From contig JAQCFG010000015.1 of NCBI GenBank assembly GCA_027618255.1, positions 1 to 37,383 on the forward strand: a stretch of DNA of 37,383 nt. The letters are read 5' to 3'. Source of the DNA: Cyanobacteriota bacterium (lineage in GTDB: Bacteria; Cyanobacteriota; Vampirovibrionia; LMEP-6097). The notes under the pieces were generated by a model. The model made no database searches and was not told the DNA's origin. It worked only from the letters and a program-made list of their open reading frames with translations. This document shows, one piece after another, positions 10,148-32,325 of this stretch. The position numbers were made by a program, and so were the translations under genes. How positions within the stretch are numbered: the stretch's first letter is position 1; the number at the start of each line of letters is the position of its first letter.

Positions 10148-11479
10148 TTAAACTAGACGTAAAGCCTTTACCAGCCGAGGAATCTCAGCAACTGCATAAA
10201 GCGGTACACTCAAAATCCCATCTTTAAAATCCAAACGATTAGTTGAAATTCGCAAGCCTATAGGACAATCAAAATTGTCCATGAAATACTTGAGACTTTT
10301 GAGTCTACCTCGATGACTAGACTTAACTTCAACTGGAATTTGTTTAGAGCCTACTGAAATTAAATAATCAATTTCTGCAGCATTACTTTTATCCTCTCGC
10401 TCCCAATAGAATAATTTTTGATCCTGCAGAGCTGAAGTAGTTGCGAGTAATTCTTGTCCAACAAATTGTTCAGCTAAGGCTCCAGCAGCAATAGAGTGAA
10501 GATCTTTAGTCAAGATGATGTCTTCACTAAGCCCTAAAATATTTTGCATCAAACCAATATCAAGCATGATTGCTTTAAAGTGCTTGTCTGAAGCACCTGC
10601 TTCAAATGGTAAACCAGTACCATTAGCACGTTTGATTTTATGAGCAACTTTAGCTTTGACCAACAGTTCCAAAGCCTCTTTAATATTAGTCGATTTGGTG
10701 TCAGGATTAATTCTAGAATAAACAAACTTGTTACTCACAAGTTTTGGCAAGCCTTGCAGCACTTCTTCTAAATACTTAGCTTGAGCTCTTTGGGAATACT
10801 TCCCAAAATCGTCTTTATAGCTGGTAAGTAGTGAATCTTGCAGGCTTAGTAATTTAGTGATATTGACTTGATTAATATAGGCATGAATAATTTCTGGCAT
10901 ACCGCCAAGGTAAAAAAACTGCTTTAGTTCTTCATTGATAACTGAATCAATACTGGCTTGATACTCATCCTCAAGCGATAGTAATTGAATCCATTCAACC
11001 ATGGAAGATTTACCGATAGCTTCTAAATATTCATAAAAACTCATTGGATAAAGATACATGTACTGCACTCTGCCAACAGGTACACTAATCTGTTCTGACT
11101 CCAAAGTAAAATCTAATAATGAGCCTGCACTGATCACATGCAGGTCAGGCATCTCCTCATAAAAATATCTAAGACTAACTATTGCTTGCGGACATTGTTG
11201 AATCTCATCAAGAAACAAAAGTGTTTTGGATGGAATAATTTTTTGAGATAAAGTAATTTGAATTGCGTTAATAATTTTTTGTGGATCATTAGTATTAAAA
11301 ATATCCTTGAGTTCAGGCCTCCTTTCAAAATTAATCTCTACAAAATTAGCAAAGTTGTTCTTAGCAAAATTTCTGATGATATATGACTTGCCAACCTGCC
11401 TAGCCCCGCGAAGTATCACTGGTTTGTGTTGTTTTGACAGAAACCACTGCTTAAGCTCTTGTTCTATTTTACGTCGCAT
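10148..11479 (-). CDS. AAA ATPase with C-terminal DUF4143 domain
   Basis: A 443-residue member of the AAA_14/DUF4143 family, widespread multi-copy ATPases of unsettled role. Walker A is GARQVGKS (residues 25-32), Walker B TLLFLDEIQQC, and sensor-like VISAGSLLDF follows. The C-terminal domain ends with a restriction-endonuclease-like pattern, AAEIDYLISVGSKQIPVEVKSS, where E, D and the ExK triad fit the PD-(D/E)XK fold to which DUF4143 is usually assigned. It is transcribed alone, divergently from plsX. TATAAT ends exactly 6 nt before the ATG and no Shine-Dalgarno is present, so the mRNA is probably leaderless. Two further relatives occur in this window (24604 and 28238). Confidence 0.88.
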   Translation of the reverse strand: MRRKIEQELKQWFLSKQHKPVILRGARQVGKSYIIRNFAKNNFANFVEINFERRPELKDIFNTNDPQKIINAIQITLSQKIIPSKTLLFLDEIQQCPQAIVSLRYFYEEMPDLHVISAGSLLDFTLESEQISVPVGRVQYMYLYPMSFYEYLEAIGKSSMVEWIQLLSLEDEYQASIDSVINEELKQFFYLGGMPEIIHAYINQVNITKLLSLQDSLLTSYKDDFGKYSQRAQAKYLEEVLQGLPKLVSNKFVYSRINPDTKSTNIKEALELLVKAKVAHKIKRANGTGLPFEAGASDKHFKAIMLDIGLMQNILGLSEDIILTKDLHSIAAGALAEQFVGQELLATTSALQDQKLFYWEREDKSNAAEIDYLISVGSKQIPVEVKSSHRGRLKSLKYFMDNFDCPIGLRISTNRLDFKDGILSVPLYAVAEIPRLVKALRLV

Positions 11480-22790: not shown

Positions 22791-24557
22791 ATGGCAAACG
22801 AGACTTTAGGCCTTAACGACGATTTTACGCTTGATCCTGACTATCAAGCCAAGCTTGATGTCATCGAAAATGGTGGACTCAATGGTGAGATTATTGATCA
22901 TACTAAGCATTTTGATGAGTTCTTTCCAAGTCTAGAAAAGTTTTTGCGCAGAGCCGTTGAGTATTCCAAAAATCCAAACAAGACAGTCAATATGAACCAT
23001 CTTGATTATGGAATTCATGTACCTGATGAGCTTGGAGTTGAGCAAGAAGCGATTGACTATGTTTTGCCTTTTTATAATTCTATTGACAGTAGAACTGGGC
23101 TTGATTGGCGCAATGTGATGCCAATTACTTTATTGCCTGCGGTGCTTGGTGCGCTTGGTGCTGTCATTGTAAATCCAAATCTAGTTACCAGTAAGTATGG
23201 CAAGCGCGCAAATGAGCTTGAAGTGCGCGTGGTCAAATCGCTTGCCAAGATTCTTGGTTTTAAGGATCTTGCCAAAGCCGGTGGGCTCTCTCTTGAAGGC
23301 GGCACCAAGGGCAATATGTACGGGTATATTTTTGGTTTGCGCAAGGCTTTCCCCAATGTCAAAGAAACTGGTTTGATGAACGTCAAAGAGAAGTTTTTGT
23401 TTATAAATTCACAAGCTGGACATTTTTCTAACTTTACTAACCTAGCTGCAATTGGAGTTGGTAGGCAAAACTCTATTCGTATTCCTTGTCATAGTGATGC
23501 TTCTATCAATCTTGATAAACTCAAAGAGACTTTATTTAGTTGTATGGAAAACAATATTGTTGTTCCTACGATTTTAATTACCGTTGGCACCACAGATGCT
23601 TGTGCAATTGATGATGTGCGTGCGGTGCGTGAGATTATTGATGAAGCTAGCAAACAGTTTCCAAAGATGCACAAGCCGCATCTGCACATTGATGCAGCGA
23701 TTGGTTGGGCATTTAGTTTTTTTAATAACTATGATACAGCAGCGAATCCTTTGCATTTTACTGAGTCATTTATTGAGAAATTACCTGAGATTCAAGCAAA
23801 ATCTAGAAATTTAAATTTGGCAGATTCAGTTACTGTCGATGTGCACAAAACTGGTTTTACTCCTTATAGTTGTAGCTTCTTAGTGGTCAAAGACAAAGAG
23901 GATTTTGAACACTTGATGTGGGATGCTAGTGAGTTTAAGTATTTTGATCCAAGCGAATCTAAAATAGCACCTGTGCAGTACTCACTTGAGTGTACTAGAA
24001 GTAGTATTGGGATTTATGCTGCAGCAATGGCCTTTAACACTCTTGGTATTGAGGGCTATCAAACCCTCTTGGCTGCTAGTTTACAGTACTCTGATATGCT
24101 CAAGCAAAGATTTATGAGCTTTAATAATATCGGGGTGATTAACAAGTCACTTGGTTTTACTACTTTGTTTAGACCTTATCCTAGTTTTGTCAAAGATGCT
24201 GAAGCGCTTTTGAAGCACGAGATTAAAGATCCAGATTTTCAAACTCAATCAAAACAGCTCTCGGTTTTTGTTGATGATTTTTTTAAGTTCTGGGAGCTGC
24301 ACAAAAAACCAGATACTCCATTACTAGATCATATTAAGTCAGGTGCTTGGGGACAATATGGCAAGCATGATTATGAACTGACAGCTTGGAAGGCTTATTT
24401 ATTGAATCCTCGCGCCGGTCGCTATCTCAAAAGATTTGTTGATGAGTTTATCGCTTTGCGCAGAGAATATGAGAGACAATTGCCAGAAGAGTATTTGGCT
24501 GAAATAAAGAGTATTTGCAGTTTCAATGCGATTTCTACGGAGTCCGCTCCTGAATAA
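22791..24557 (+). CDS. PLP-dependent (group II) amino acid decarboxylase
   Basis: A 588-residue fold-type I enzyme. HIDAAIGWAF gives the PLP-ring Asp (D301), DSVTVDVHKTGFTPYSCSF the Schiff-base lysine K353, and VGTTDACAIDDV the conserved strand before them. GLSLEGGTKGNMYG resembles the phosphate-binding stretch of glutamate and aromatic-amino-acid decarboxylases. It is about 100 residues longer than typical group II enzymes, with extra segments at both ends, so the substrate (glutamate, aromatic or another amino acid) is not fixed. AAGGGG lies about 7 nt before the ATG. Monocistronic by appearance; its 3' end is duplicated just downstream (see repeat at 24538-24590). Confidence 0.85.
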   Translation: MANETLGLNDDFTLDPDYQAKLDVIENGGLNGEIIDHTKHFDEFFPSLEKFLRRAVEYSKNPNKTVNMNHLDYGIHVPDELGVEQEAIDYVLPFYNSIDSRTGLDWRNVMPITLLPAVLGALGAVIVNPNLVTSKYGKRANELEVRVVKSLAKILGFKDLAKAGGLSLEGGTKGNMYGYIFGLRKAFPNVKETGLMNVKEKFLFINSQAGHFSNFTNLAAIGVGRQNSIRIPCHSDASINLDKLKETLFSCMENNIVVPTILITVGTTDACAIDDVRAVREIIDEASKQFPKMHKPHLHIDAAIGWAFSFFNNYDTAANPLHFTESFIEKLPEIQAKSRNLNLADSVTVDVHKTGFTPYSCSFLVVKDKEDFEHLMWDASEFKYFDPSESKIAPVQYSLECTRSSIGIYAAAMAFNTLGIEGYQTLLAASLQYSDMLKQRFMSFNNIGVINKSLGFTTLFRPYPSFVKDAEALLKHEIKDPDFQTQSKQLSVFVDDFFKFWELHKKPDTPLLDHIKSGAWGQYGKHDYELTAWKAYLLNPRAGRYLKRFVDEFIALRREYERQLPEEYLAEIKSICSFNAISTESAPE

Positions 24558-24590
24558 TGACATTTTTGCGGAGTAGGCTCCTGAATAATG
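24538..24590. repeat. Tandem duplication of the decarboxylase 3' end
   Basis: Two 22-bp copies, 24538-24559 and 24569-24590, match at 20 positions (CGGAGT..GCTCCTGAATAATG). Copy 1 encodes the final residues and stop of the decarboxylase; copy 2 is noncoding. Each contains the small hairpin GGAG-nnnn-CTCC. The TG ending copy 2 forms the extended part of the next gene's promoter. Confidence 0.7.
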
Positions 24591-24591
24591 G

Positions 24592-24597
24592 TATAAT
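24592..24597 (+). promoter_or_regulatory. Extended -10, leaderless spacing
   Basis: TGGTATAAT (TG at 24589-24590) followed by 6 nt (CTAAGT) and the ATG at 24604. Start of transcription and translation should coincide. The same 6-nt distance occurs at the DUF4143 gene ending at 11479. Confidence 0.65.
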
Positions 24598-24603
24598 CTA
24601 AGT

Positions 24604-25800
24604 ATGAGTTTTGAGCGTATCTTGGATATAGATTTGCCTAAACAGCAAAGTTGTTTTTTGTTTGGAGCAAGGCAGACTGGCAAAACAAGCTATTTGCGAG
24701 TGAAATTTCCTTCTGCCAAAGTAATAGATTTACTCAAAACAGACCTATACTTACGCTACCAGGAAAATCCAAGCTACCTGAGAGAGGATTTGTTGGCCCT
24801 CAAAGTAGATTCTCTACATCAGTTAGTAGTTATAGATGAAGTCCAAAAAATACCACAACTCTTGGATGAAGTTCACTGGCTAATTGAAAACACTAAGATG
24901 AATTTTATACTTTGTGGTTCTAGTGCCCGTCAGTTAAAAAGATCAGGGGTGAATTTATTGGGAGGCCGCGCTTGGAGTTTCAAGATGTTTCCTCTTGTCT
25001 ATCCTGAATTAGGCAAAGACCTAGATTTGCTTAAAATCTTTAACCGTGGACTTTTGCCAAGTCATTATTTAAGCAAAAATCCACTCAAAGACTTAGAAGC
25101 CTATACTCAGGATTATCTCACTGAAGAGATTAAAGCGGAAAGTTTAGTAAGAAATTTATCAGCATTTTCTAAATTTCTAAAATCAATCGCTTTTTCTCAT
25201 GGAGAATTAACAAATTATTCTAATATTGCTAGAGACTGTGGAGTTGATGCTAAAACGGTTAAAGAATACTATCAAATTTTAATAGACACTCTCCTGGGAT
25301 ACTACTTAGAGCCGTTCTCTAGAAAAGTTACTAGAGACACGATACGATCTACTCCAAAGTTTTATCTATTTGATGTCGGTCTTGCAAATTATATCTGTCA
25401 GAGAGAAATGAAGAGCCTTCAGGGTGCAGAAGCAGGTAAGTCTCTTGAGCATTATATTTTCTTAGAACTACTAGCGTGCATAAAATATAGGGGGCTAAGA
25501 TATGACTTGCAATTCTGGAGAACACAAGATGCTAAGCACGAAGTGGACTTTATCATAAGCAAACAAAATGAGCCTCTGTCCGCGATTGAAATTAAAATTA
25601 CTACTAAAGCAAGCAAACAAGATTATAAATCTCTTCTTAGCTTCCATAAAGAATTTCCAGGAACTAAGCTAATCCTTGTTAGCCAGGACCCAGTCAAACG
25701 CCTAGTCAAGCTTGATGACTCGACTGAGATTCTGGTTTATCCTTATTTGGAGTTTTTGCAAGACTTGTGGAGTGATTTTTTTGATAAAATTAATCAATAA
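24604..25800 (+). CDS. AAA ATPase with DUF4143 domain, operon with RNA ligase
   Basis: A 398-residue ATPase of the AAA_14/DUF4143 family. Walker A GARQTGKT (about residues 20-27), Walker B LVVIDEVQKI, sensor FILCGSSARQLK; then a winged-helix-like region (NYSNIARDCGVDAKTVKEYY) and a C-terminal PD-(D/E)XK-like pattern, HEVDFIISKQ with SAIEIKI. Its stop overlaps the start of the RNA ligase by one base (TAATG), so the two are made together. It is clearly diverged from the other two copies in the window. Biochemical role is not established for the family; ATP-dependent handling of nucleic acid is a guess from the fold. Confidence 0.88.
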   Translation: MSFERILDIDLPKQQSCFLFGARQTGKTSYLRVKFPSAKVIDLLKTDLYLRYQENPSYLREDLLALKVDSLHQLVVIDEVQKIPQLLDEVHWLIENTKMNFILCGSSARQLKRSGVNLLGGRAWSFKMFPLVYPELGKDLDLLKIFNRGLLPSHYLSKNPLKDLEAYTQDYLTEEIKAESLVRNLSAFSKFLKSIAFSHGELTNYSNIARDCGVDAKTVKEYYQILIDTLLGYYLEPFSRKVTRDTIRSTPKFYLFDVGLANYICQREMKSLQGAEAGKSLEHYIFLELLACIKYRGLRYDLQFWRTQDAKHEVDFIISKQNEPLSAIEIKITTKASKQDYKSLLSFHKEFPGTKLILVSQDPVKRLVKLDDSTEILVYPYLEFLQDLWSDFFDKINQ

Positions 25801-26783
25801 TGGAATTTAGTTTCAAACCCTATCACCCAGTTGAAAATCTTAGTCGAGAAGAATTTATTGCGACTATTTATGACAATGGTTTAGCTGGTGGTGAGTTTAT
25901 AGTTCAAGAAAAAATACATGGCGCTAATTTATGTTTTATTACTGACGGACAAGTTATTTATTCAGCCAAACGCACCGGCTTACTGAAAGAGGATGAGAGG
26001 TTCTTTAATTTCCAGAAAGTACGAGATAAGTACAAAGAACAAATACTCAAAGCTCATTCATTAGTCACAAAGCTCTATCCAGAAACAGATTTGCTCTATA
26101 TTTTTGGTGAGCTTTTTGGTGGTTACTATCCGCATCCTGATGTTCCCAAAGTCAAAGATGCAATTCAATTACAGCAAGGGGTTTGTTATTCAGCTGATAA
26201 TGATTTTTATGCTTTTGATTTGCGTATTCACAATGCTAGTTATTTGAGCTTGGATGAAAGTATGTCAATTTTTGAGGAGCTTGGTTTTCTCTATGCCAAA
26301 GAGCTTTTTAGAGGGACCTTGGATGCTTGTCTGGCTTTTCCATATGAATTTGAATCAAAAATACCAGGCTACTTGGGTCTACCAGTGATAGCCAGCAATA
26401 TTGCTGAGGGGCTCGTTATTAAACCACTGGAAGCGAAATTCTTACCAAGTAAAGCTAGGGTTATAATCAAAAACAAAAATCCTAAGTATGAAGAAAAAAT
26501 CATCAAAAAGACCAAACACAAAAAAACCAAAGTGAAATTAACAGATGCTTGCAAGAAATTAGCACAAGAAGCAGAAAACTATATCAACCAAAATAGATTA
26601 GATGCTGCTATTAGCAAACTAGGTGAAGTTCATGATGGTCAGTTGATAGGTTTTCTTGCTAAGGATGCTTATGAAGATTTTGCTAAGGACTTTATTAAAG
26701 AGCTTGAGGCTTTGGACAAAGAAGAACAAAAACAAATTAGGCAAATAATTTCCAAAACTGCTGGGGTCTTAGTAAGATCTTGA
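25800..26783 (+). CDS. Rnl2-family RNA ligase
   Basis: ATP-dependent RNA ligase that would seal 3'-OH/5'-phosphate ends, of the T4 Rnl2/KREL type. All nucleotidyltransferase motifs are present in order: motif I EKIHGAN with lysine K38 as the AMP acceptor, SAKRTG (Ia-like), motif III IFGELFGGYY with E104, motif IV AEGLVIKP with E203, and motif V RVIIKNKNPKY. The 327-residue length equals T4 Rnl2 (334), and the ~90-residue C-terminal domain is kept, starting with a Lys-rich linker (KKTKHKKTK). It overlaps the upstream ATPase by 1 bp and the downstream symporter by 4 bp. Such ligases are uncommon in bacterial chromosomes and suggest RNA repair. Confidence 0.9.
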   Translation: MEFSFKPYHPVENLSREEFIATIYDNGLAGGEFIVQEKIHGANLCFITDGQVIYSAKRTGLLKEDERFFNFQKVRDKYKEQILKAHSLVTKLYPETDLLYIFGELFGGYYPHPDVPKVKDAIQLQQGVCYSADNDFYAFDLRIHNASYLSLDESMSIFEELGFLYAKELFRGTLDACLAFPYEFESKIPGYLGLPVIASNIAEGLVIKPLEAKFLPSKARVIIKNKNPKYEEKIIKKTKHKKTKVKLTDACKKLAQEAENYINQNRLDAAISKLGEVHDGQLIGFLAKDAYEDFAKDFIKELEALDKEEQKQIRQIISKTAGVLVRS

Positions 26784-28174
26784 TAAACCTATCTATAGTT
26801 GACTATGCAATTCTCATTGGCTATTTTGTCCTAGTATTTGCCATTGGCTTTTTTGTTAAAAATGAGCAAGGTGATGATTTGGAGAATTATTTTTTGGCAG
26901 GACGCAAGCTCACCTTGCCACTTTTTGTGGCGACCTTGGTTACTACTTGGTACGGTAATTTACTTAGTGTCGGCGAGTTAGCTTTCAAGCAGGGGCTAGT
27001 AATGTGGCTTACTCAAGGATTGTTTTGGTATTTTACTTATTTTTTTGTAGCATTTTTTCTGGCTGAGAAAATCCACAAGACCAAGTTGTTTTCGATTCCA
27101 GATCAACTAGAAGCTAGTTATGATAAGGCAACTGCCTTGCTTGGAGCTGGGGTCAATCTGCTCTTGATGGTGCCAGCGGTTTATATTCTTTCGCTTGCTT
27201 ATATCTGTGAATTGATTTTTGGCTGGGATAAAATCTCTTGTGTCTTAGTCGGTACCTTGATTCCACTACTCTATATGATCAAAGGTGGTTTTAAGGCAGT
27301 TGTTTACACTGATTTTATTCAGTTCATTTTTATGTTTTTGGGAATAGCTTTCGTGATTCCTTTTGCTTATTTCAAGTATGGTGGTTTTGAATTTCTTACT
27401 GCTAATTTACCTAGCTCGCACCTGAGCTTGACTGGGGAATGGTCTTGGCAATTGATTTTGGCATGGTTTTTAATTGCAATGTGGGCAATAGTGCATCCAA
27501 GTTTTTATCAGAGGATTTTTGCAAGTCCTGATCTTAAAACAGCCAAGCAAGGGATTCTATGGTCAATTGGTTTTTGGTTTATTTTTGATATGATGATTAA
27601 CTTGGTGGGGCTTTATGCTTTTGCTGCAATGCCTGATCTTGAACCAGCTACTTCGCTATTAGTTTTCTCAGCTAGTGTTTTGCCTGTTGTCTTTAAAGGA
27701 ATATTTTTTACTGGTTTAGTTGCAACTGTGATGTCGACACTTGACTCACTTGGTTTCTCTAGTGCGATGTCGGTTTCTTATGATATTTTCCTTCGAGTCA
27801 AAAAAGATCTTAGTCACAAACAAGTGATTAATATTAATAAATGGGCTTTGGTTTTTATTCTTGGCTTGGGAATTATTATTGCAATATATTTTGAGTCTTT
27901 GATTGAGCTTATGTATGTGCGCGGCACTATTGCGATTAGTGCTTTGTTGGTGCCTTTGCTGGCAAGTTATTTCCCTAATATCATTGCAAGCCCCCCAAGG
28001 GGGTTTAGCAAGCAAAGCAATCCCAGAAGAGCTGGATTCTGGTCTATGCTTGCTGGTATATTAGGAGCAAGCTTAGGATATTTCTTGAAGCAGTATTGTG
28101 GGCTTGAGCTTGAACCGATATTTTTAGGGCTCGTTTTATCCTTGCTATGCTTTGTTTTTAAGCAAAAATCTTAA
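26780..28174 (+). CDS. Sodium:solute symporter (SSS family)
   Basis: A 464-residue polytopic inner-membrane protein with about 12-13 helices. NYFLAGRKLTLPLFVATLVTTWYG is the SSS signature region around helices 1-2, and KGIFFTGLVATVMSTLDS contains the Ser-rich sodium-site stretch of helix 8 (VATVMSTLDS). The substrate is unknown. The start is TTG at 26780, whose codon overlaps the RNA ligase stop (TTGA), so translation is coupled. There is an odd palindrome within the coding sequence (27983-28021), giving the hydrophilic insert SPPRGFSKQSNPRR. Its place in an operon with an ATPase and an RNA ligase is unexplained. Confidence 0.88.
   Translation: MINLSIVDYAILIGYFVLVFAIGFFVKNEQGDDLENYFLAGRKLTLPLFVATLVTTWYGNLLSVGELAFKQGLVMWLTQGLFWYFTYFFVAFFLAEKIHKTKLFSIPDQLEASYDKATALLGAGVNLLLMVPAVYILSLAYICELIFGWDKISCVLVGTLIPLLYMIKGGFKAVVYTDFIQFIFMFLGIAFVIPFAYFKYGGFEFLTANLPSSHLSLTGEWSWQLILAWFLIAMWAIVHPSFYQRIFASPDLKTAKQGILWSIGFWFIFDMMINLVGLYAFAAMPDLEPATSLLVFSASVLPVVFKGIFFTGLVATVMSTLDSLGFSSAMSVSYDIFLRVKKDLSHKQVININKWALVFILGLGIIIAIYFESLIELMYVRGTIAISALLVPLLASYFPNIIASPPRGFSKQSNPRRAGFWSMLAGILGASLGYFLKQYCGLELEPIFLGLVLSLLCFVFKQKS
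27983..28021. repeat. Palindromic insert inside the symporter gene
   Basis: A hairpin CCCCC-AA-GGGGG flanked by ATTGC (27983-27987) and GCAAT (28017-28021) encodes an unusual polar, basic loop between membrane segments. Its core AAGCCCC..AAGGGG matches the hairpin near 17430. An adjacent AATCCCAG-AAGAG-CTGGATT (28019 onward) forms a second hairpin. Confidence 0.35.
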
Positions 28175-28237
28175 ATTTTGATCGGTATGTTAATATCCAG
28201 GCATAAATATTGGACTACAGGGTAAAATATAGGTATA

Positions 28238-29356
28238 TTGAAACGCTACCTTGAACAACAGATCAAACAAGATCTTGAGCAAAAAATGGTTTTGGTTACT
28301 GGCCCTAGGCAAGTAGGTAAGACGACACTTGCTTTAGATTTATTAGATAATCAAGAAGATCGATATCTCAATTGGGACACTAGTAGTGGTAGGGACAAAA
28401 TCTTGCAAAAAGTTTTTCCGAGTTCTGCTGGGATTGTAGTCTTGGATGAAATTCACAAGTTTGCTAAGTGGCGTGATCTGCTCAAAGATCTTTATGATTC
28501 ACGTTCTAATGATTTTCAGATTTTGGTGACTGGTAGTGCCCGCTTGGATCATTACCGTAAGGGAGGAGATTCGCTGCAAGGGCGCTATCATCTTTTACGT
28601 TTGCATCCATTGTCATTTAGGGAATTAAATCAAAATGATTTTAAGACTTTAAACTCTCTTCTTGATCTTGGTCCATTCCCTGAGCCTTATCTCTCTCAAG
28701 ATGAGACTGAAGCTAGGCGTTGGTCGCGTGAATATAGACAAAGATTGATTAACGAAGAATTGCAGGACTTGGAAAAGGTCTCTGAGATCTCTTTGTTGGA
28801 GCTGCTTTCACACAAGCTTTCTGATTCTGTAGCTTCCATACTTTCAATTAATTCACTTAGAGAAGATCTTGGAGTGGCACATAAAACAGTTAGTCGTTGG
28901 ATAGAAATATTTGAAAATCTCTATCATATTTACAGAGTACATCCATTTGGCTCATCCAAAATTAAAGCTGTGAAAAAAGAATCCAAGCATTATTTCTATG
29001 ATTGGAATTTAATCGAGAACCCAAGTGCTCGTTTGGAAAATATGCTTGCTTCACATTTGCTTAAGTGGTGCCATTATATCGAAGATACTCAAGGCTATGA
29101 TATGGAGCTTAGGTTTTTTAGAGACCTTGAACAGCGCGAAGTAGATTTTGTGATTTTGCAAAACAATAAGCCAATTGAATTTATTGAGTGCAAACTCAGC
29201 CAAAGACCAATAGACAAGAATTTAGTTTACCTTAAGAAAAAATTTCCTGAGGTTAAGGCTACTCAGGTCTGTCTTGAGGACTGTGAGGATCAGCGAATGG
29301 GTGATTTGCAAATTAGACAATGTTCTATTAAGGATTATCTCTGGGAGAAGATTTGA
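28238..29356 (+). CDS. AAA ATPase with DUF4143 domain (third copy)
   Basis: A 372-residue protein of the same family as those at 10148 and 24604. Walker A GPRQVGKT (about residues 22-29), Walker B IVVLDEIHKF, sensor ILVTGSARLD; then a helical mid-section with DNA-binding-like LREDLGVAHKTVSRWIEIFE; and a PD-(D/E)XK-like end, REVDFVILQNNKPIEFIECKLS. The best start is TTG at 28238 with TAAAAT 9 nt upstream, near-leaderless. It follows the symporter after 63 nt in the same direction and may be a separate unit. Together with the gene at 24604 it brackets the RNA ligase and symporter. Confidence 0.85.
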   Translation: MKRYLEQQIKQDLEQKMVLVTGPRQVGKTTLALDLLDNQEDRYLNWDTSSGRDKILQKVFPSSAGIVVLDEIHKFAKWRDLLKDLYDSRSNDFQILVTGSARLDHYRKGGDSLQGRYHLLRLHPLSFRELNQNDFKTLNSLLDLGPFPEPYLSQDETEARRWSREYRQRLINEELQDLEKVSEISLLELLSHKLSDSVASILSINSLREDLGVAHKTVSRWIEIFENLYHIYRVHPFGSSKIKAVKKESKHYFYDWNLIENPSARLENMLASHLLKWCHYIEDTQGYDMELRFFRDLEQREVDFVILQNNKPIEFIECKLSQRPIDKNLVYLKKKFPEVKATQVCLEDCEDQRMGDLQIRQCSIKDYLWEKI

Positions 29357-29368
29357 AGGATTGGGTCT

Positions 29369-29463
29369 TCAACCTCCACAACTAGATCCACAACCATGAC
29401 CACCGCAAGAATGTGAGCCACAAGAATGTCCTCCATCATGTCCATGTGAAGCATGGGAAGCAT
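29369..29463 (-). pseudogene. Gly/His/Cys-rich C-terminal gene remnant
   Basis: Read on the minus strand this encodes a tail HASHASHGHDGGHSCG, SHSCGGHGCGSSCGG and a TGA stop (29369-29371), a composition typical of the extreme C-termini of some membrane proteins. No start codon is present and the frame is cut at 29463/29464 exactly where the inverted-repeat element begins, so it is the tail of a gene lost by insertion or rearrangement. Confidence 0.5.
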
Positions 29464-29648
29464 GGGTCCGTAGCTAGACATTAGACAAATTATATGTAGT
29501 TTTGCGAAGCTTATAAAATTTGATTATAGAAGTCCTAGCTTACTCAAAATTATTAAAACACTAATCACAATTTCAAAATCAAGTAATTGATTTTTTGTAC
29601 ATGTAGTAAAAGAACTAATAAAAATGTCTGATGTCTAGCTACGGACCC
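29464..29648. mobile_element. 185-bp element with 24-bp terminal inverted repeats
   Basis: The arms 29464-29487 (starting GGGTCCGTAGCTAGACAT) and 29625-29648 are inverted copies with a single mismatch. The 137-bp interior is A+T-rich and noncoding. It is bounded by two broken genes, one on each side, so it looks like a MITE-like insertion or a repeat-mediated junction. I see no flanking target-site duplication. The arms contain GTAG, the tetranucleotide typically linked to REP sequences, but do not form a strong hairpin individually. Confidence 0.6.
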
Positions 29649-29881
29649 TATCTCTTTACCTTAGATAGGTTTGCATCAGGGGTTGAAAGATAAAGGTGAT
29701 AATGATTGTGCATTAAACAAAAAGCAAATATTCTAATATTGAATTTCTCCACAGCTTTTCTACATAACGACAGAAAATAAAAGAAATCATCTTCTTGATT
29801 ATATAAATTTTGTCTATTAATTCCACGTGAACAAACATGGTAAAAAGCATCCGGAAATTCAATACTTAAATCTCGAGTCAT
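29648..29881 (-). pseudogene. REP-associated tyrosine transposase (RAYT), N-terminal fragment
   Basis: A 77-residue fragment of a Y1/IS200-like HUH transposase. FPDAFYHVCSRGINRQNLY is the family N-terminus, and CLMHNHYHLYL holds the metal-binding HUH histidines (H60, H62). The frame breaks after PDANLSK, a few bases before the inverted-repeat element; the catalytic tyrosine region (normally some 50-100 residues later) is gone. The ATG at 29881 has a strong AAAGGAG site, better than GTG at 29884. Inactive as it stands. RAYTs mobilise REP/REPIN repeats, which fits the nested palindromes elsewhere in the window. Confidence 0.75.
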
Positions 29882-30000
29882 CACAAACTCCTTTCAAGTA
29901 TTTAATCCTAACGAATTCTCTTCAAAAAATTTATTGACTTGCGGTAATTAACATAGGAGTCAAACTTTAGGGGCAGACCTTAACTTAAATGTTCGTTGTT

Positions 30001-30018
30001 CGGATACGACCCTGTTCC
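30001..30018 (-). repeat. Copy 2 of the 18-bp dispersed motif
   Basis: On the minus strand GGAACAGGGTCGTATCCG, matching 16 of 18 bases of 10065-10082. Close by (about 29969-29985) is AGGGGCAGACCTTAACTT, a type of sequence often seen at RAYT element ends. The 200-bp gap 29885-30090 holds no complete gene. Confidence 0.4.
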
Positions 30019-30090
30019 TCTCAAACCTTTAATTCAGAGTCAGTGATCCCTGCAACAGTAAGACTAATACCATTAGTAGAGATAGAACCC

Positions 30091-31872
30091 TTATGAATAA
30101 TGTATTTTCTCTACAAATAGTTTTGGTACCTTAACATTTTGATCTCTTTTGAAACAAATCTTGCCGCCAATATGAGTTAAAGCATCTGGAAGAGAAGTCA
30201 CTTGTGAGCTACGTAAATTCAAATCGCCGCCAATATGAGTTAAAGCATCTGGAAGAGAAGTCACTTTTGAGGTATATAAATTCAAATCGCCGCCAATATG
30301 AGTTAAAGCAGCTGGAAGAGAAGTCACTTGTGAGCTACGTAAATTCAAATCGCTGCTAATATGAGTTAAAGCATCTGGAAGAGAAGTCACTTGTGAGTTA
30401 GATAAATCCAAATAGCCGCCAATATGAGTTAAAGCATCTGGAAGAGAAGTCACTTGTGAGTTTTCTAAATCCAAATAGCCGCCAATATGAGTTAAAGCAG
30501 CTGGAAGAGAAGTCACTTGTGAGCTACGTAAATCCAAATCGCCGCCAAAGATTTTAGTATCATCATTAAGTTCATCTATTGAAGTAGCTACTTTGTTAGC
30601 CAAGACATCAAAGATGCTTGCATAGTCTTGCTTCATATCTCTTTTAGCTTTTATTTCAGCTATTCTAGGATCTTTTTGATAACCAAAGCCTTCTATGATG
30701 GAGTCTATTTCATAAAGGAATCGTAATTCGTCTTTAGTTAAATCTACAGTATTCTCTATATCAGTAAGAGCCTTCATGTCAGCAGATTTTTTCTTATACA
30801 ATTTACCATCTTGGAATTCTTTAAGCTTATCTTCTACGACATCAGTAATAGCAGAATCTAAGTTTTGTTGTTCAGCAATTCCTCTTACTTCAGCGATACT
30901 ATTATTCTGCATTCTAATAGCGGCTCTAGGAATAGTAGGTTTGTTTTCAGAGTCAAAAGAAAAATACACATAGAAATCACCTGAGCTTAATTGAGTCCTA
31001 GCTGTAGATTCAGCAGCAGTACACCATCCTGTGCCTTTACCCTTAAGTGCTTCGACAAGAACTATATGATCTGAGCCTTTAGGGTACTTTACCCATGCAC
31101 CTTCTGTAGTACTAAGATTTTTTTCAGATGAAGCTAATTTTTTAATAGCATATTCATAGAGAGTTCTAAAATTAGCATTTTGTATTAAATCTTTTAATTG
31201 ATTATCATCCTTAATTTCTGGAAATATTGCCTCTAAATTTGTGTTTTTTTCTTGTTTACTAAGGTGATTTGGAAGAGTGTCAAATTGAGTAACTTTTTTA
31301 ATAACTAAGTCCATCACTAGAGCGAGAGCTTCTCTATCAAGTTCAGTGAAGGGTGCAGTAGTATCAGAAGACCTATTGCTAAATTTCTGTTTTGTTTTAT
31401 CGTATTGTCCAAGCTTAAGCATTCCATCAAAAGCCCAGTGTTTAGCCCATATAGGGTAACTAGAGCTATCATCGGAGAGTAAATAATCAAGCCAATCTTC
31501 GATTCTAGCTTTTTGGTCTTGGATAATAACTTCTGTTAGTTGTTTTTTTAATTCATCGGTAATATCGACATCACCATGCCCCAAGTCTCTTGCAATTCTT
31601 TGTTGTCTTATGAATTCTGCTTCTGGAATATTTTCTGGTTTGATAACGTGTTCTTTGAAGTAGTAGTCTTTAATTCTTGCGATTCTATCTGGGTTTGGTG
31701 GCTGTGGGAAGTGGGTCTGGACAATTGCTCTATGGAAATTTGCAATTTTTGTTGTTGGCTTGCTATCAATAGGTTCTCTAATAGCTGCAAGGCCTGTAGG
31801 TAAGGTAACATGAAACTTATCATCAACTCGATGTATTAAATTAGCGCCAGCAGCTGCAATCTGATTAAGCAT
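30091..31872 (-). CDS. Large protein of unknown function with C-terminal leucine-rich repeats
   Basis: 593 residues, no signal peptide or membrane helix. I do not know its function. The middle contains a distinctive block: WVKYPKGSDHIVLVEALKG, then GKGTGWCTAAESTARTQL (W283, C284), GDFYVYFSFD, PRAAIRMQNNSIAEVRGIAE. I have the impression of similar TGWCTA blocks in hypothetical proteins of candidate-phylum genomes but cannot verify it. Residues about 445-570 are six nearly identical 21-residue repeats of the form GGDLNLRSSQVTSLPDALTHI, an LPx-type leucine-rich repeat. AAGGGA lies upstream of the ATG. A likely frameshift at the 3' end (see findings) may have shortened it by some 25 residues. The N-terminal 250 residues are helical. 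Confidence 0.75.
   Translation of the reverse strand: MLNQIAAAGANLIHRVDDKFHVTLPTGLAAIREPIDSKPTTKIANFHRAIVQTHFPQPPNPDRIARIKDYYFKEHVIKPENIPEAEFIRQQRIARDLGHGDVDITDELKKQLTEVIIQDQKARIEDWLDYLLSDDSSSYPIWAKHWAFDGMLKLGQYDKTKQKFSNRSSDTTAPFTELDREALALVMDLVIKKVTQFDTLPNHLSKQEKNTNLEAIFPEIKDDNQLKDLIQNANFRTLYEYAIKKLASSEKNLSTTEGAWVKYPKGSDHIVLVEALKGKGTGWCTAAESTARTQLSSGDFYVYFSFDSENKPTIPRAAIRMQNNSIAEVRGIAEQQNLDSAITDVVEDKLKEFQDGKLYKKKSADMKALTDIENTVDLTKDELRFLYEIDSIIEGFGYQKDPRIAEIKAKRDMKQDYASIFDVLANKVATSIDELNDDTKIFGGDLDLRSSQVTSLPAALTHIGGYLDLENSQVTSLPDALTHIGGYLDLSNSQVTSLPDALTHISSDLNLRSSQVTSLPAALTHIGGDLNLYTSKVTSLPDALTHIGGDLNLRSSQVTSLPDALTHIGGKICFKRDQNVKVPKLFVEKIHYS
30163..30540 (-). repeat. Six tandem 63-bp repeats encoding leucine-rich repeats
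   Basis: Units begin at 30163, 30226, 30289, 30352, 30415 and 30478 (plus-strand GCCGCCAATATGAGTTAAAG or a close variant); a degenerate seventh starts at 30541. The units differ at only a few bases, so copy number was probably changed recently by slippage or recombination. Confidence 0.95.
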
Positions 31873-32125
31873 AATAATCCCTTAGAATTATAAAGGGAGT
31901 TTTAATAGATAATTGATAGTAAATCAGAACTTATGAATGAGGCAAATTCCAACTTCTAGCTTAATTTTCTAAAAAGACTCATAGATTACTTGTTAATCCT
32001 AGCTTATTACAATTTAAAAGATAAAATGAATTTCAAAAATCCATAGGTTAAAACCACCAAAAAGTAGATCTAATCGTCAAAATCAGGAGAAAATACCCCT
32101 GAATCTCTATTTAGTTGGATTTTTA

Positions 32126-32280
32126 TCAGCTAGTGTCAAAAGCGAGTTCTTTCTCAAGAGCTTCTGCTGGAGTCATCCAGTCCAAACATTTCAACGGAGC
32201 TGTTCTTATATTTTCTGTAATTATATTCAAATCTGCTTGAGTAACATTACTAAAATCAGTAAGAATAAGTCGAATAAGGG
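32126..32280 (-). pseudogene. IS30-like transposase, C-terminal remnant
   Basis: The minus strand encodes TDFSNVTQADLNIITENI, then RTAPLKCLDWMTPAEALEKE and a TGA stop (32126-32128). This matches the end of IS30-family transposases (N-x-R-P-R-K-x-L-G-x-x-T-P-x-E). About 45-50 residues remain; the catalytic DDE core is absent. The rest of the 453-bp gap (31873-32125, and 32281 to the speE promoter) shows no gene. Confidence 0.55.
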
Positions 32281-32311
32281 TCAGGTTGAAGTGCACTCCT
32301 TATACTGATGA

Positions 32312-32317
32312 TAAAAT
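32312..32317 (+). promoter_or_regulatory. Extended -10 of speE, near-leaderless
   Basis: TGATAAAAT (TG at 32309-32310) followed by 8 nt and the ATG at 32326; no Shine-Dalgarno site. Confidence 0.55.
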
Positions 32318-32325
32318 AGACCCCT

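What the first reader, a model, noticed from the sequence alone, without database searches (positions are those of the whole stretch)
24604..28174. Overlapping operon of DUF4143 ATPase, Rnl2-type RNA ligase and SSS symporter
The three genes overlap by 1 and 4 bp and share one leaderless-type promoter. The ligase has all nucleotidyltransferase motifs (K38, E104, E203, motif V lysines). An RNA-sealing enzyme coupled to a AAA ATPase with a nuclease-like C-terminal domain suggests an RNA repair or anti-phage module that cuts and rejoins RNA, with the symporter as an unexplained membrane component. A further DUF4143 ATPase follows directly. I know of no described system with this composition.
Basis: partly seen in the sequence, partly recalled or inferred. 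Interest (0 to 1): 0.62.

Follow-up and report, generated by a model that had tools for sequence, protein, structure and literature searches.

The report
RNA-ligase defence-ATPase cassette inserted in operon
The three overlapping genes are real, but they are not one machine: a mobile candidate-defence ATPase gene and an RNA-ligase gene have been inserted between two older metabolic neighbours, so the symporter only looks like a partner, although the ATPase family carries an unexpected, tightly spaced control element in its promoters.

Summary
The genes, overlaps and ligase motifs are confirmed. The three-gene system is not. The window is from a Melainabacteria MAG. In its nearest sister genome the same decarboxylase runs directly into the same symporter through a TAATG overlap, with no ATPase and no ligase. 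A second congener also lacks both. Bases ~24503-26779 are therefore an insertion into a decarboxylase-symporter gene pair, and the symporter is a bystander. The following DUF4143 ATPase lies in a second, separate insertion. Rnl2-type ligases elsewhere (22 loci) never have a DUF4143 ATPase or symporter beside them; the closest (63%) stands alone.

The ATPase belongs to PDC-S01, a very common, experimentally unvalidated, single-gene defence candidate with 14 copies in this genome. The ligase meets the motif and domain criteria of T4 Rnl2 but scores below NCBI's equivalog cut-off.

One finding looks new. Promoters of this ATPase clade carry paired direct repeats exactly 31 or 32 bp apart (22 of 41 non-redundant genes against 2 of 88 control genes). 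The sequence varies between genes; the spacing does not. This suggests an autoregulatory double operator, which here also sits upstream of the ligase. Whether ATPase and ligase cooperate is open; recurrence gives no support.

The parts
22791..24557 (+). PLP-dependent (Pyridoxal_deC) decarboxylase: left flank, ancestral partner of the symporter
   Evidence: Pfam E 4.7e-26; 91% and 86% identical orthologues in G001 and G002; in G001 its stop overlaps the symporter start
24503..26779 (+). inserted block (operator/promoter + ATPase + ligase), absent from the same site in sister species
   Evidence: BLASTN of G001 C45: homology ends at 24502 and resumes at 26780; G002 site also lacks it
24525..24590 (+). 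two copies of a 35-bp direct repeat at 31-bp spacing (24525-24559, 24556-24590), with palindromic cores GGAGTCCGCTCC (24539-24550) and GGAGTAGGCTCC (24570-24581): predicted double operator
   Evidence: same 31/32-bp spacing upstream of 22 of 41 non-redundant relatives against 2 of 88 control genes
24592..24597 (+). TATAAT -10 box, 6 nt before the ATPase ATG (leaderless-type promoter)
   Evidence: sequence
24604..25800 (+). AAA_14 + DUF4143 ATPase (PDC-S01): AAA, winged helix, PD-(D/E)XK
   Evidence: Pfam, PADLOC PDC-S01 E 3e-48, AlphaFold2 model pLDDT 92.6, invariant G26 K27 D78 E79 and E329
25785..25790 (+). TAAAAT -10-like box that could drive the ligase on its own
   Evidence: sequence; same position as in several other genes of the window
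25800..26783 (+). Rnl2-type ATP-dependent RNA ligase with T4_Rnl2_C domain
   Evidence: Pfam, T4 Rnl2 structures phmmer E 7e-26, motifs; TIGR02307 177.8 bits, below the 197.15 cut-off
26780..28174 (+). SSF sodium:solute symporter: right flank, bystander
   Evidence: Pfam; 83% identical orthologue directly after the decarboxylase in G001
28238..29356 (+). second DUF4143/PDC-S01 ATPase, distant paralogue, in a separate insertion between symporter and spermidine synthase
   Evidence: Pfam, PADLOC; G001 goes straight from symporter to spermidine synthase

Best explanation
Bases ~24503-26779 are an insertion at the stop/start junction of a decarboxylase-symporter gene pair. The insert holds (1) a leaderless promoter overlapped by a double operator, (2) a PDC-S01-type ATPase made of an AAA domain, a winged helix and a PD-(D/E)XK nuclease fold, and (3) an Rnl2-type RNA ligase. 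Shown: the empty site, the absence of a recurrent three-gene order, the domain content and the 31-bp operator repeat. Inferred: the ATPase binds its own operator through the winged helix and keeps its promoter low; on invasion it is released or activated and its nuclease domain attacks nucleic acid, as proposed for PDC-S01. Also inferred: the ligase, made by read-through from that promoter or from its own -10 box, seals 3'-OH/5'-phosphate nicks in RNA by the T4 Rnl2 chemistry (lysine-AMP, then AppRNA, then sealing). The ligase is a passenger whose RNA-repair benefit does not need the ATPase. The symporter has no part in it. Its overlap with the ligase is a by-product of insertion into a pair that already overlapped.
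For: G001: decarboxylase stop and symporter start overlap (TAATG), with no insert. G002 has no ATPase or ligase there. The ligase was found in only one other of 60 relatives and 5 others of 382 class genomes. No DUF4143, SSF or decarboxylase lies in 22 ligase loci. DUF4143 genes number 14 in this genome and 9-41 in family members. A second DUF4143 gene sits at another TAATG junction in G001 (ychJ) that is empty in this genome, so tight overlaps are not special to the ligase. PDC-S01 match. Model with winged-helix-like helices 185-228 and an alpha/beta C-terminal domain carrying EVDF and AIEIK. Operator spacing P ~ 3e-19 against control genes. The ligase in G045 is a lone gene with its own TATAAT.
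Against: ATPase and ligase came to lie at one junction with a 1-bp overlap, so they may have been selected or transferred together. In G045 the nearest ligase and the nearest ATPase homologue lie on one contig, 20 kb apart. No transposase, terminal repeat or target duplication was identified, so how the block moved is unknown. Independent loss of the pair in G001 and G002 cannot be formally excluded.
Confidence: 0.8

Rival explanations
1. Two-gene cut-and-repair or toxin-antidote module: the ATPase's nuclease domain cuts RNA (for example tRNA) on infection and the co-expressed ligase rejoins the host RNA or limits self-damage; the symporter is irrelevant.
For: 1-bp overlap and probable shared operator-controlled promoter; both genes inserted at one site; T4 Rnl2 chemistry seals RNA; relatives of the ligase sit near RlaP in Tenacibaculum, an RNA-repair-associated family by Pfam's description.
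Against: No second ATPase-ligase pair in 382 class genomes or 22 ligase loci; close ATPase relatives are solo genes; nearest ligase is solo; PD-(D/E)XK domains usually act on DNA.
Confidence: 0.13
2. A true three-component ATPase-ligase-symporter system.
For: Gene order and overlaps in this one genome.
Against: Orthologous symporter follows the decarboxylase without ATPase or ligase in the sister species; no recurrence.
Confidence: 0.02
3. Assembly error or chimera in the MAG: the ATPase-ligase block was joined artificially between decarboxylase and symporter.
For: Draft MAG of 104 contigs; unique placement.
Against: Junctions preserve both flanking reading frames; G+C is even (35-39%) across the block; a 56% paralogue of the ATPase lies elsewhere in this genome; a similar insertion is seen independently in G001.
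Confidence: 0.05

Closest known systems
PDC-S01 (PADLOC single-gene phage-defence candidate; AAA_14 + DUF4143)
   Same: Whole-length profile matches for both ATPases (E 3e-48 and 1.7e-51); ATPase fused to PD-(D/E)XK, as described in PMC12988326; single-gene, multi-copy, scattered
   Different: Followed here by an Rnl2 ligase at 1 bp overlap; carries a 31-bp-spaced double operator that the passages I read do not mention. Activity of PDC-S01 itself is not validated (PMC12988326).
T4 RNA ligase 2 (Rnl2) family
   Same: Motif I K38, R58, E104, E203, K224/K226 and the C-terminal T4_Rnl2_C domain
   Different: About 31-34% identity to the best phage enzymes; below the NCBIfam TIGR02307 equivalog cut-off; bacterial chromosomal, no phage genes beside it
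Chromosomal Rnl2-type ligases of Bacteroidota and Melainabacteria
   Same: 40-63% identity, same domain order
   Different: Neighbours differ each time: NTP_transf_5/AbiEii-like gene, RlaP, Band_7, restriction-modification; no ATPase or symporter
HARP-Rnl3 linkage (PMC12153264)
   Same: An RNA ligase genetically linked to another nucleic-acid enzyme in prokaryotes
   Different: A different ligase family (Rnl3, PF18330) and a different partner (protein-only RNase P)

Membership tests
PDC-S01 (DUF4143 ATPase) | Profile match over most of the protein | tested here: met
   PDLC04789 E 3e-48, residues 7-367; Pfam AAA_14 and DUF4143. PADLOC's own detection thresholds were not available here.
PDC-S01 (DUF4143 ATPase) | Walker A/B ATPase plus PD-(D/E)XK residues | tested here: met
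   G26 K27 D78 E79 and E329 invariant, E313 D315 K331 at least 90% in 61 sequences; fold
PDC-S01 (DUF4143 ATPase) | Protects against phage | not testable with these tools
   Needs an assay; described as awaiting validation in PMC12988326
Rnl2 RNA ligase | Nucleotidyltransferase motifs with lysine nucleophile | tested here: met
   K38, R58, E104, E203, K224, K226 invariant
Rnl2 RNA ligase | C-terminal T4_Rnl2_C domain | tested here: met
   PF18043 51.5 bits, cut-off 27
Rnl2 RNA ligase | NCBIfam TIGR02307 equivalog score | tested here: not met
   177.8 bits against 197.15; therefore called Rnl2-type, not an equivalog
Rnl2 RNA ligase | Seals nicked RNA with ATP | not testable with these tools
   biochemistry needed
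ATPase-ligase-symporter system (proposed) | Recurrent gene order in other genomes | tested here: not met
   0 of 22 other ligase loci; empty site in G001
Transposon or integron cassette | Transposase/integrase or terminal repeats bounding the insert | tested here: inconclusive
   None seen at 24503 or 26779; ends fixed only to about 20 bp

The most novel reading that the evidence does not exclude
DUF4143/PDC-S01 genes are self-contained mobile cassettes whose ATPase is its own repressor. Its winged helix binds two palindromic sites fixed at 31 or 32 bp (three helical turns), with site sequence and protein diversifying together. Invasion lifts repression and arms the nuclease. Here the same switch also controls an RNA-ligase cargo. 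The repeat regularity is shown; binding, sensing and arming are inferred.
Probability: 0.35. Interest if true: 0.65.

Novelty: new member of a known kind. Interest (0 to 1): 0.36.

Why it matters
The case shows how overlap and operon-like order can mislead: a candidate defence gene inserted at a stop/start junction borrows the look of an operon. It also gives PDC-S01, reported as the fourth most common defence in prokaryotes (PMC12988326) and of unknown mechanism, a concrete handle: a fixed-spacing double operator predicted to be the DNA target of the protein's own winged helix, which a gel shift can test at once.

Tried and rejected
Searching IMG/VR with the first ATPase gave no relatives, so viral carriage of this ATPase was not seen. 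The repeat unit GGAGTNNGCTCCTGAATAAT is not dispersed: it occurs only at this site in the genome, so it is not a REP/MITE family. A terminal-repeat or target-duplication model for the 24503-26779 block was looked for by reading the junctions and not established. PDB sequence and fold searches of the ATPase find only generic AAA+/STAND proteins with low whole-chain TM-scores. The consensus promoter scan was uninformative, with hits at the shuffled level. The 31-bp rule was tried on distant DUF4143 genes: 1 of 10 distant class members passes, Simkania shows a weak 31-bp repeat that is not its best offset, and Thermus, Aliarcobacter, Runella, Rhizobium and Phaeobacter plasmid copies show none at 31/32 as best offset. 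The rule is therefore claimed only for the clade near the first ATPase. Operator similarity tracks protein identity (Mantel rho 0.27, P 0.001) and not host genome, but linked inheritance of promoter and gene would give the same.

Full report
WHAT IS THERE. The coordinates and overlaps in the finding are exact. Gene 1 (24604-25800) is AAA_14+DUF4143. Gene 2 (25800-26783) is an RNA_ligase domain with a T4_Rnl2_C domain. Gene 3 (26780-28174, TTG start) is an SSF symporter. Gene 4 (28238-29356) is another AAA_14+DUF4143. The ligase matches T4 Rnl2 structures (phmmer E 7e-26) and the trypanosome editing ligase. K38, R58, E104, E203, K224 and K226 are invariant with six relatives. It scores 177.8 bits on TIGR02307, under the 197.15 equivalog cut-off, so I call it Rnl2-type. 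The window is a whole contig (C15) of a 1.99-Mb draft genome. Its nearest ligase relative is in a Candidatus Melainabacteria MAG of the same class.

THE SYMPORTER IS A BYSTANDER. In G001, the nearest relative held, the decarboxylase (91% identical to the window's 22791-24557) ends in TAATG, whose ATG starts the symporter (83% identical). BLASTN of that contig against the window is continuous up to window 24502 and resumes at 26780. G002 has decarboxylase, a small unrelated ORF, then the symporter, again without ATPase or ligase. The ligase is absent from every other genome of the family that was searched. The simplest reading is one gain of 24503-26779 in the window's lineage, at the junction of two genes that already overlapped. 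The junction is sharp to about 20 bp. The decarboxylase C-terminus changes from ELRALVS to EIKSICSFNAISTESAPE, and the symporter N-terminus (MINLSIVDYAIL against MNLALIDYAIL) is kept. The symporter has no promoter-like box of its own before its TTG.

THE SECOND ATPASE IS A SEPARATE EVENT. G001 goes from symporter directly to spermidine synthase. The window carries 28175-32325 in between: ATPase 2, a short inverted-repeat element and an LRR protein. Conversely G001 has its own DUF4143 gene in front of hisI, where the window is empty, and another at the junction before ychJ. In this genome the upstream gene (recR-like by its C-terminal sequence, my reading) overlaps ychJ by TAATG at that place, with no insert. 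In that last case the DUF4143 stop again overlaps the next start codon. Tight overlap is therefore how these genes can sit, and is not evidence of partnership with what follows.

DUF4143 GENES ARE MANY AND SOLO. There are 14 matches to ATPase 1 in this genome and 9-41 in other family members. The closest relatives (52-56%) stand alone between housekeeping genes, or their downstream neighbour could not be read because the contig ends. Both ATPases match PADLOC PDC-S01. Published surveys describe PDC-S01 as an ATPase fused to a PD-(D/E)XK domain, the fourth most common defence across prokaryotes, with experimental validation pending for most such candidates (PMC12988326). It is also the most frequent individual locus in rumen genomes (PMC13356809). 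A Thermus DUF4143 gene (TT_P0211) is listed among genes whose expression changes with plasmid DNA (PMC4406477).

DOES THE ATPASE-LIGASE PAIR RECUR? No case was found. In 382 genomes of the class the ligase occurs in six, including this one. In 22 other ligase loci from genomes and viral contigs, tblastn finds no ATPase, symporter or decarboxylase. Neighbours there are an NTP_transf_5/AbiEii-like gene, RlaP, Band_7 proteins or a restriction-modification gene. In G045 the 63% ligase is a lone gene with its own TATAAT 8 nt before the start; a 53% ATPase homologue lies 20 kb away on the same contig, which I cannot interpret. The window's ligase also has a -10-like box of its own at 25785-25790. 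Rnl2 ligases are common in T4-like phages (1358 records, at best 34% identical).

AN UNEXPECTED REGULARITY. Before ATPase 1 lie two 35-bp direct repeats 31 bp apart, each centred on GGAGnnnnCTCC. In 58 relatives (at least 36% identical, window gene included) the best-scoring direct-repeat offset, among 44 offsets allowed, is 31 or 32 in 34 genes; after removing proteins over 70% identical it is 22 of 41. In 88 unrelated genes, most of them from the same genomes, it is 2; binomial P about 3e-19. The repeat sequence differs between genes (TCCGAAATAGT, ACTCCAAATTAT, GTACTTTCGATTATCATG, CTATTTTCAGAAATACT) while the spacing does not. The repeats usually lie just before or over the start of the gene, in the -10 region. 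Operator similarity follows protein identity (Mantel rho 0.27, P 0.001) and not host genome, although linkage alone could cause that. An AlphaFold2 model (pLDDT 92.6) has an AAA domain, a three-helix plus wing segment (helices 185-195, 205-212, 216-228, strands 232-235 and 252-255) and a C-terminal alpha/beta domain with EVDF and AIEIK. A dimeric winged-helix protein binding two palindromes three helical turns apart is the natural reading. Binding is not shown. The rule is not seen in distant DUF4143 genes.

MECHANISM. Shown: insertion, domain content, operator repeats, non-recurrence. Inferred: autorepression by the ATPase, release on invasion, nuclease action; ligase made by read-through or from its own start and sealing RNA nicks as T4 Rnl2 does; symporter unrelated. 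The most serious rival is a two-gene cut-and-repair pair. It is not excluded, because one genome cannot show or deny co-selection, but nothing beyond adjacency supports it.

VERDICT. The system as proposed is not supported. The components are new members of known kinds. The operator regularity of the PDC-S01 clade is the part worth following.

Noticed in passing
window 10148-11479 (-): A third DUF4143/AAA_14 ATPase with TATAAT 12 nt before its ATG, only weakly similar to the second one.
   Followed up: partly
window 29464-29487 / 29625-29648: 24-bp inverted repeat (96% complementary) around 137 bp, MITE-like, beside a short remnant that could encode a Gly/His/Cys-rich tail; the arm sequence occurs nowhere else in the genome.
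   Followed up: partly
window 30091-31872 (-): 593-aa protein with LRR-like TSLPxALTHIGG repeats; weak NCBIfam hits to LRR effectors come only through the repeats; lies in the second insertion, absent in G001.
   Followed up: partly
promoters of many window genes: A -10-like box lies 8-20 nt before the start codon in many genes, suggesting frequent leaderless or short-leader transcripts in this lineage.
   Followed up: partly
L120 (Simkania negevensis plasmid pSn), 1625-4673: A 39.5% identical DUF4143 gene sits between two integrase genes that are near-duplicates, with GGAATATACTCC and GGAGTATACATCC upstream, resembling the window operator core.
   Followed up: partly
L038 7804-9857 (G001): Sister species carries its own DUF4143 insertion between a PAP2-like gene and hisI, where the window is empty.
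   Followed up: partly
L010 3274-4341 and 5998-6999 (Tenacibaculum): Rnl2-type ligase near RlaP (RNA repair pathway polymerase-beta family) and a DUF434/DUF5616 protein: a more convincing RNA-repair neighbourhood than the window's.
   Followed up: no
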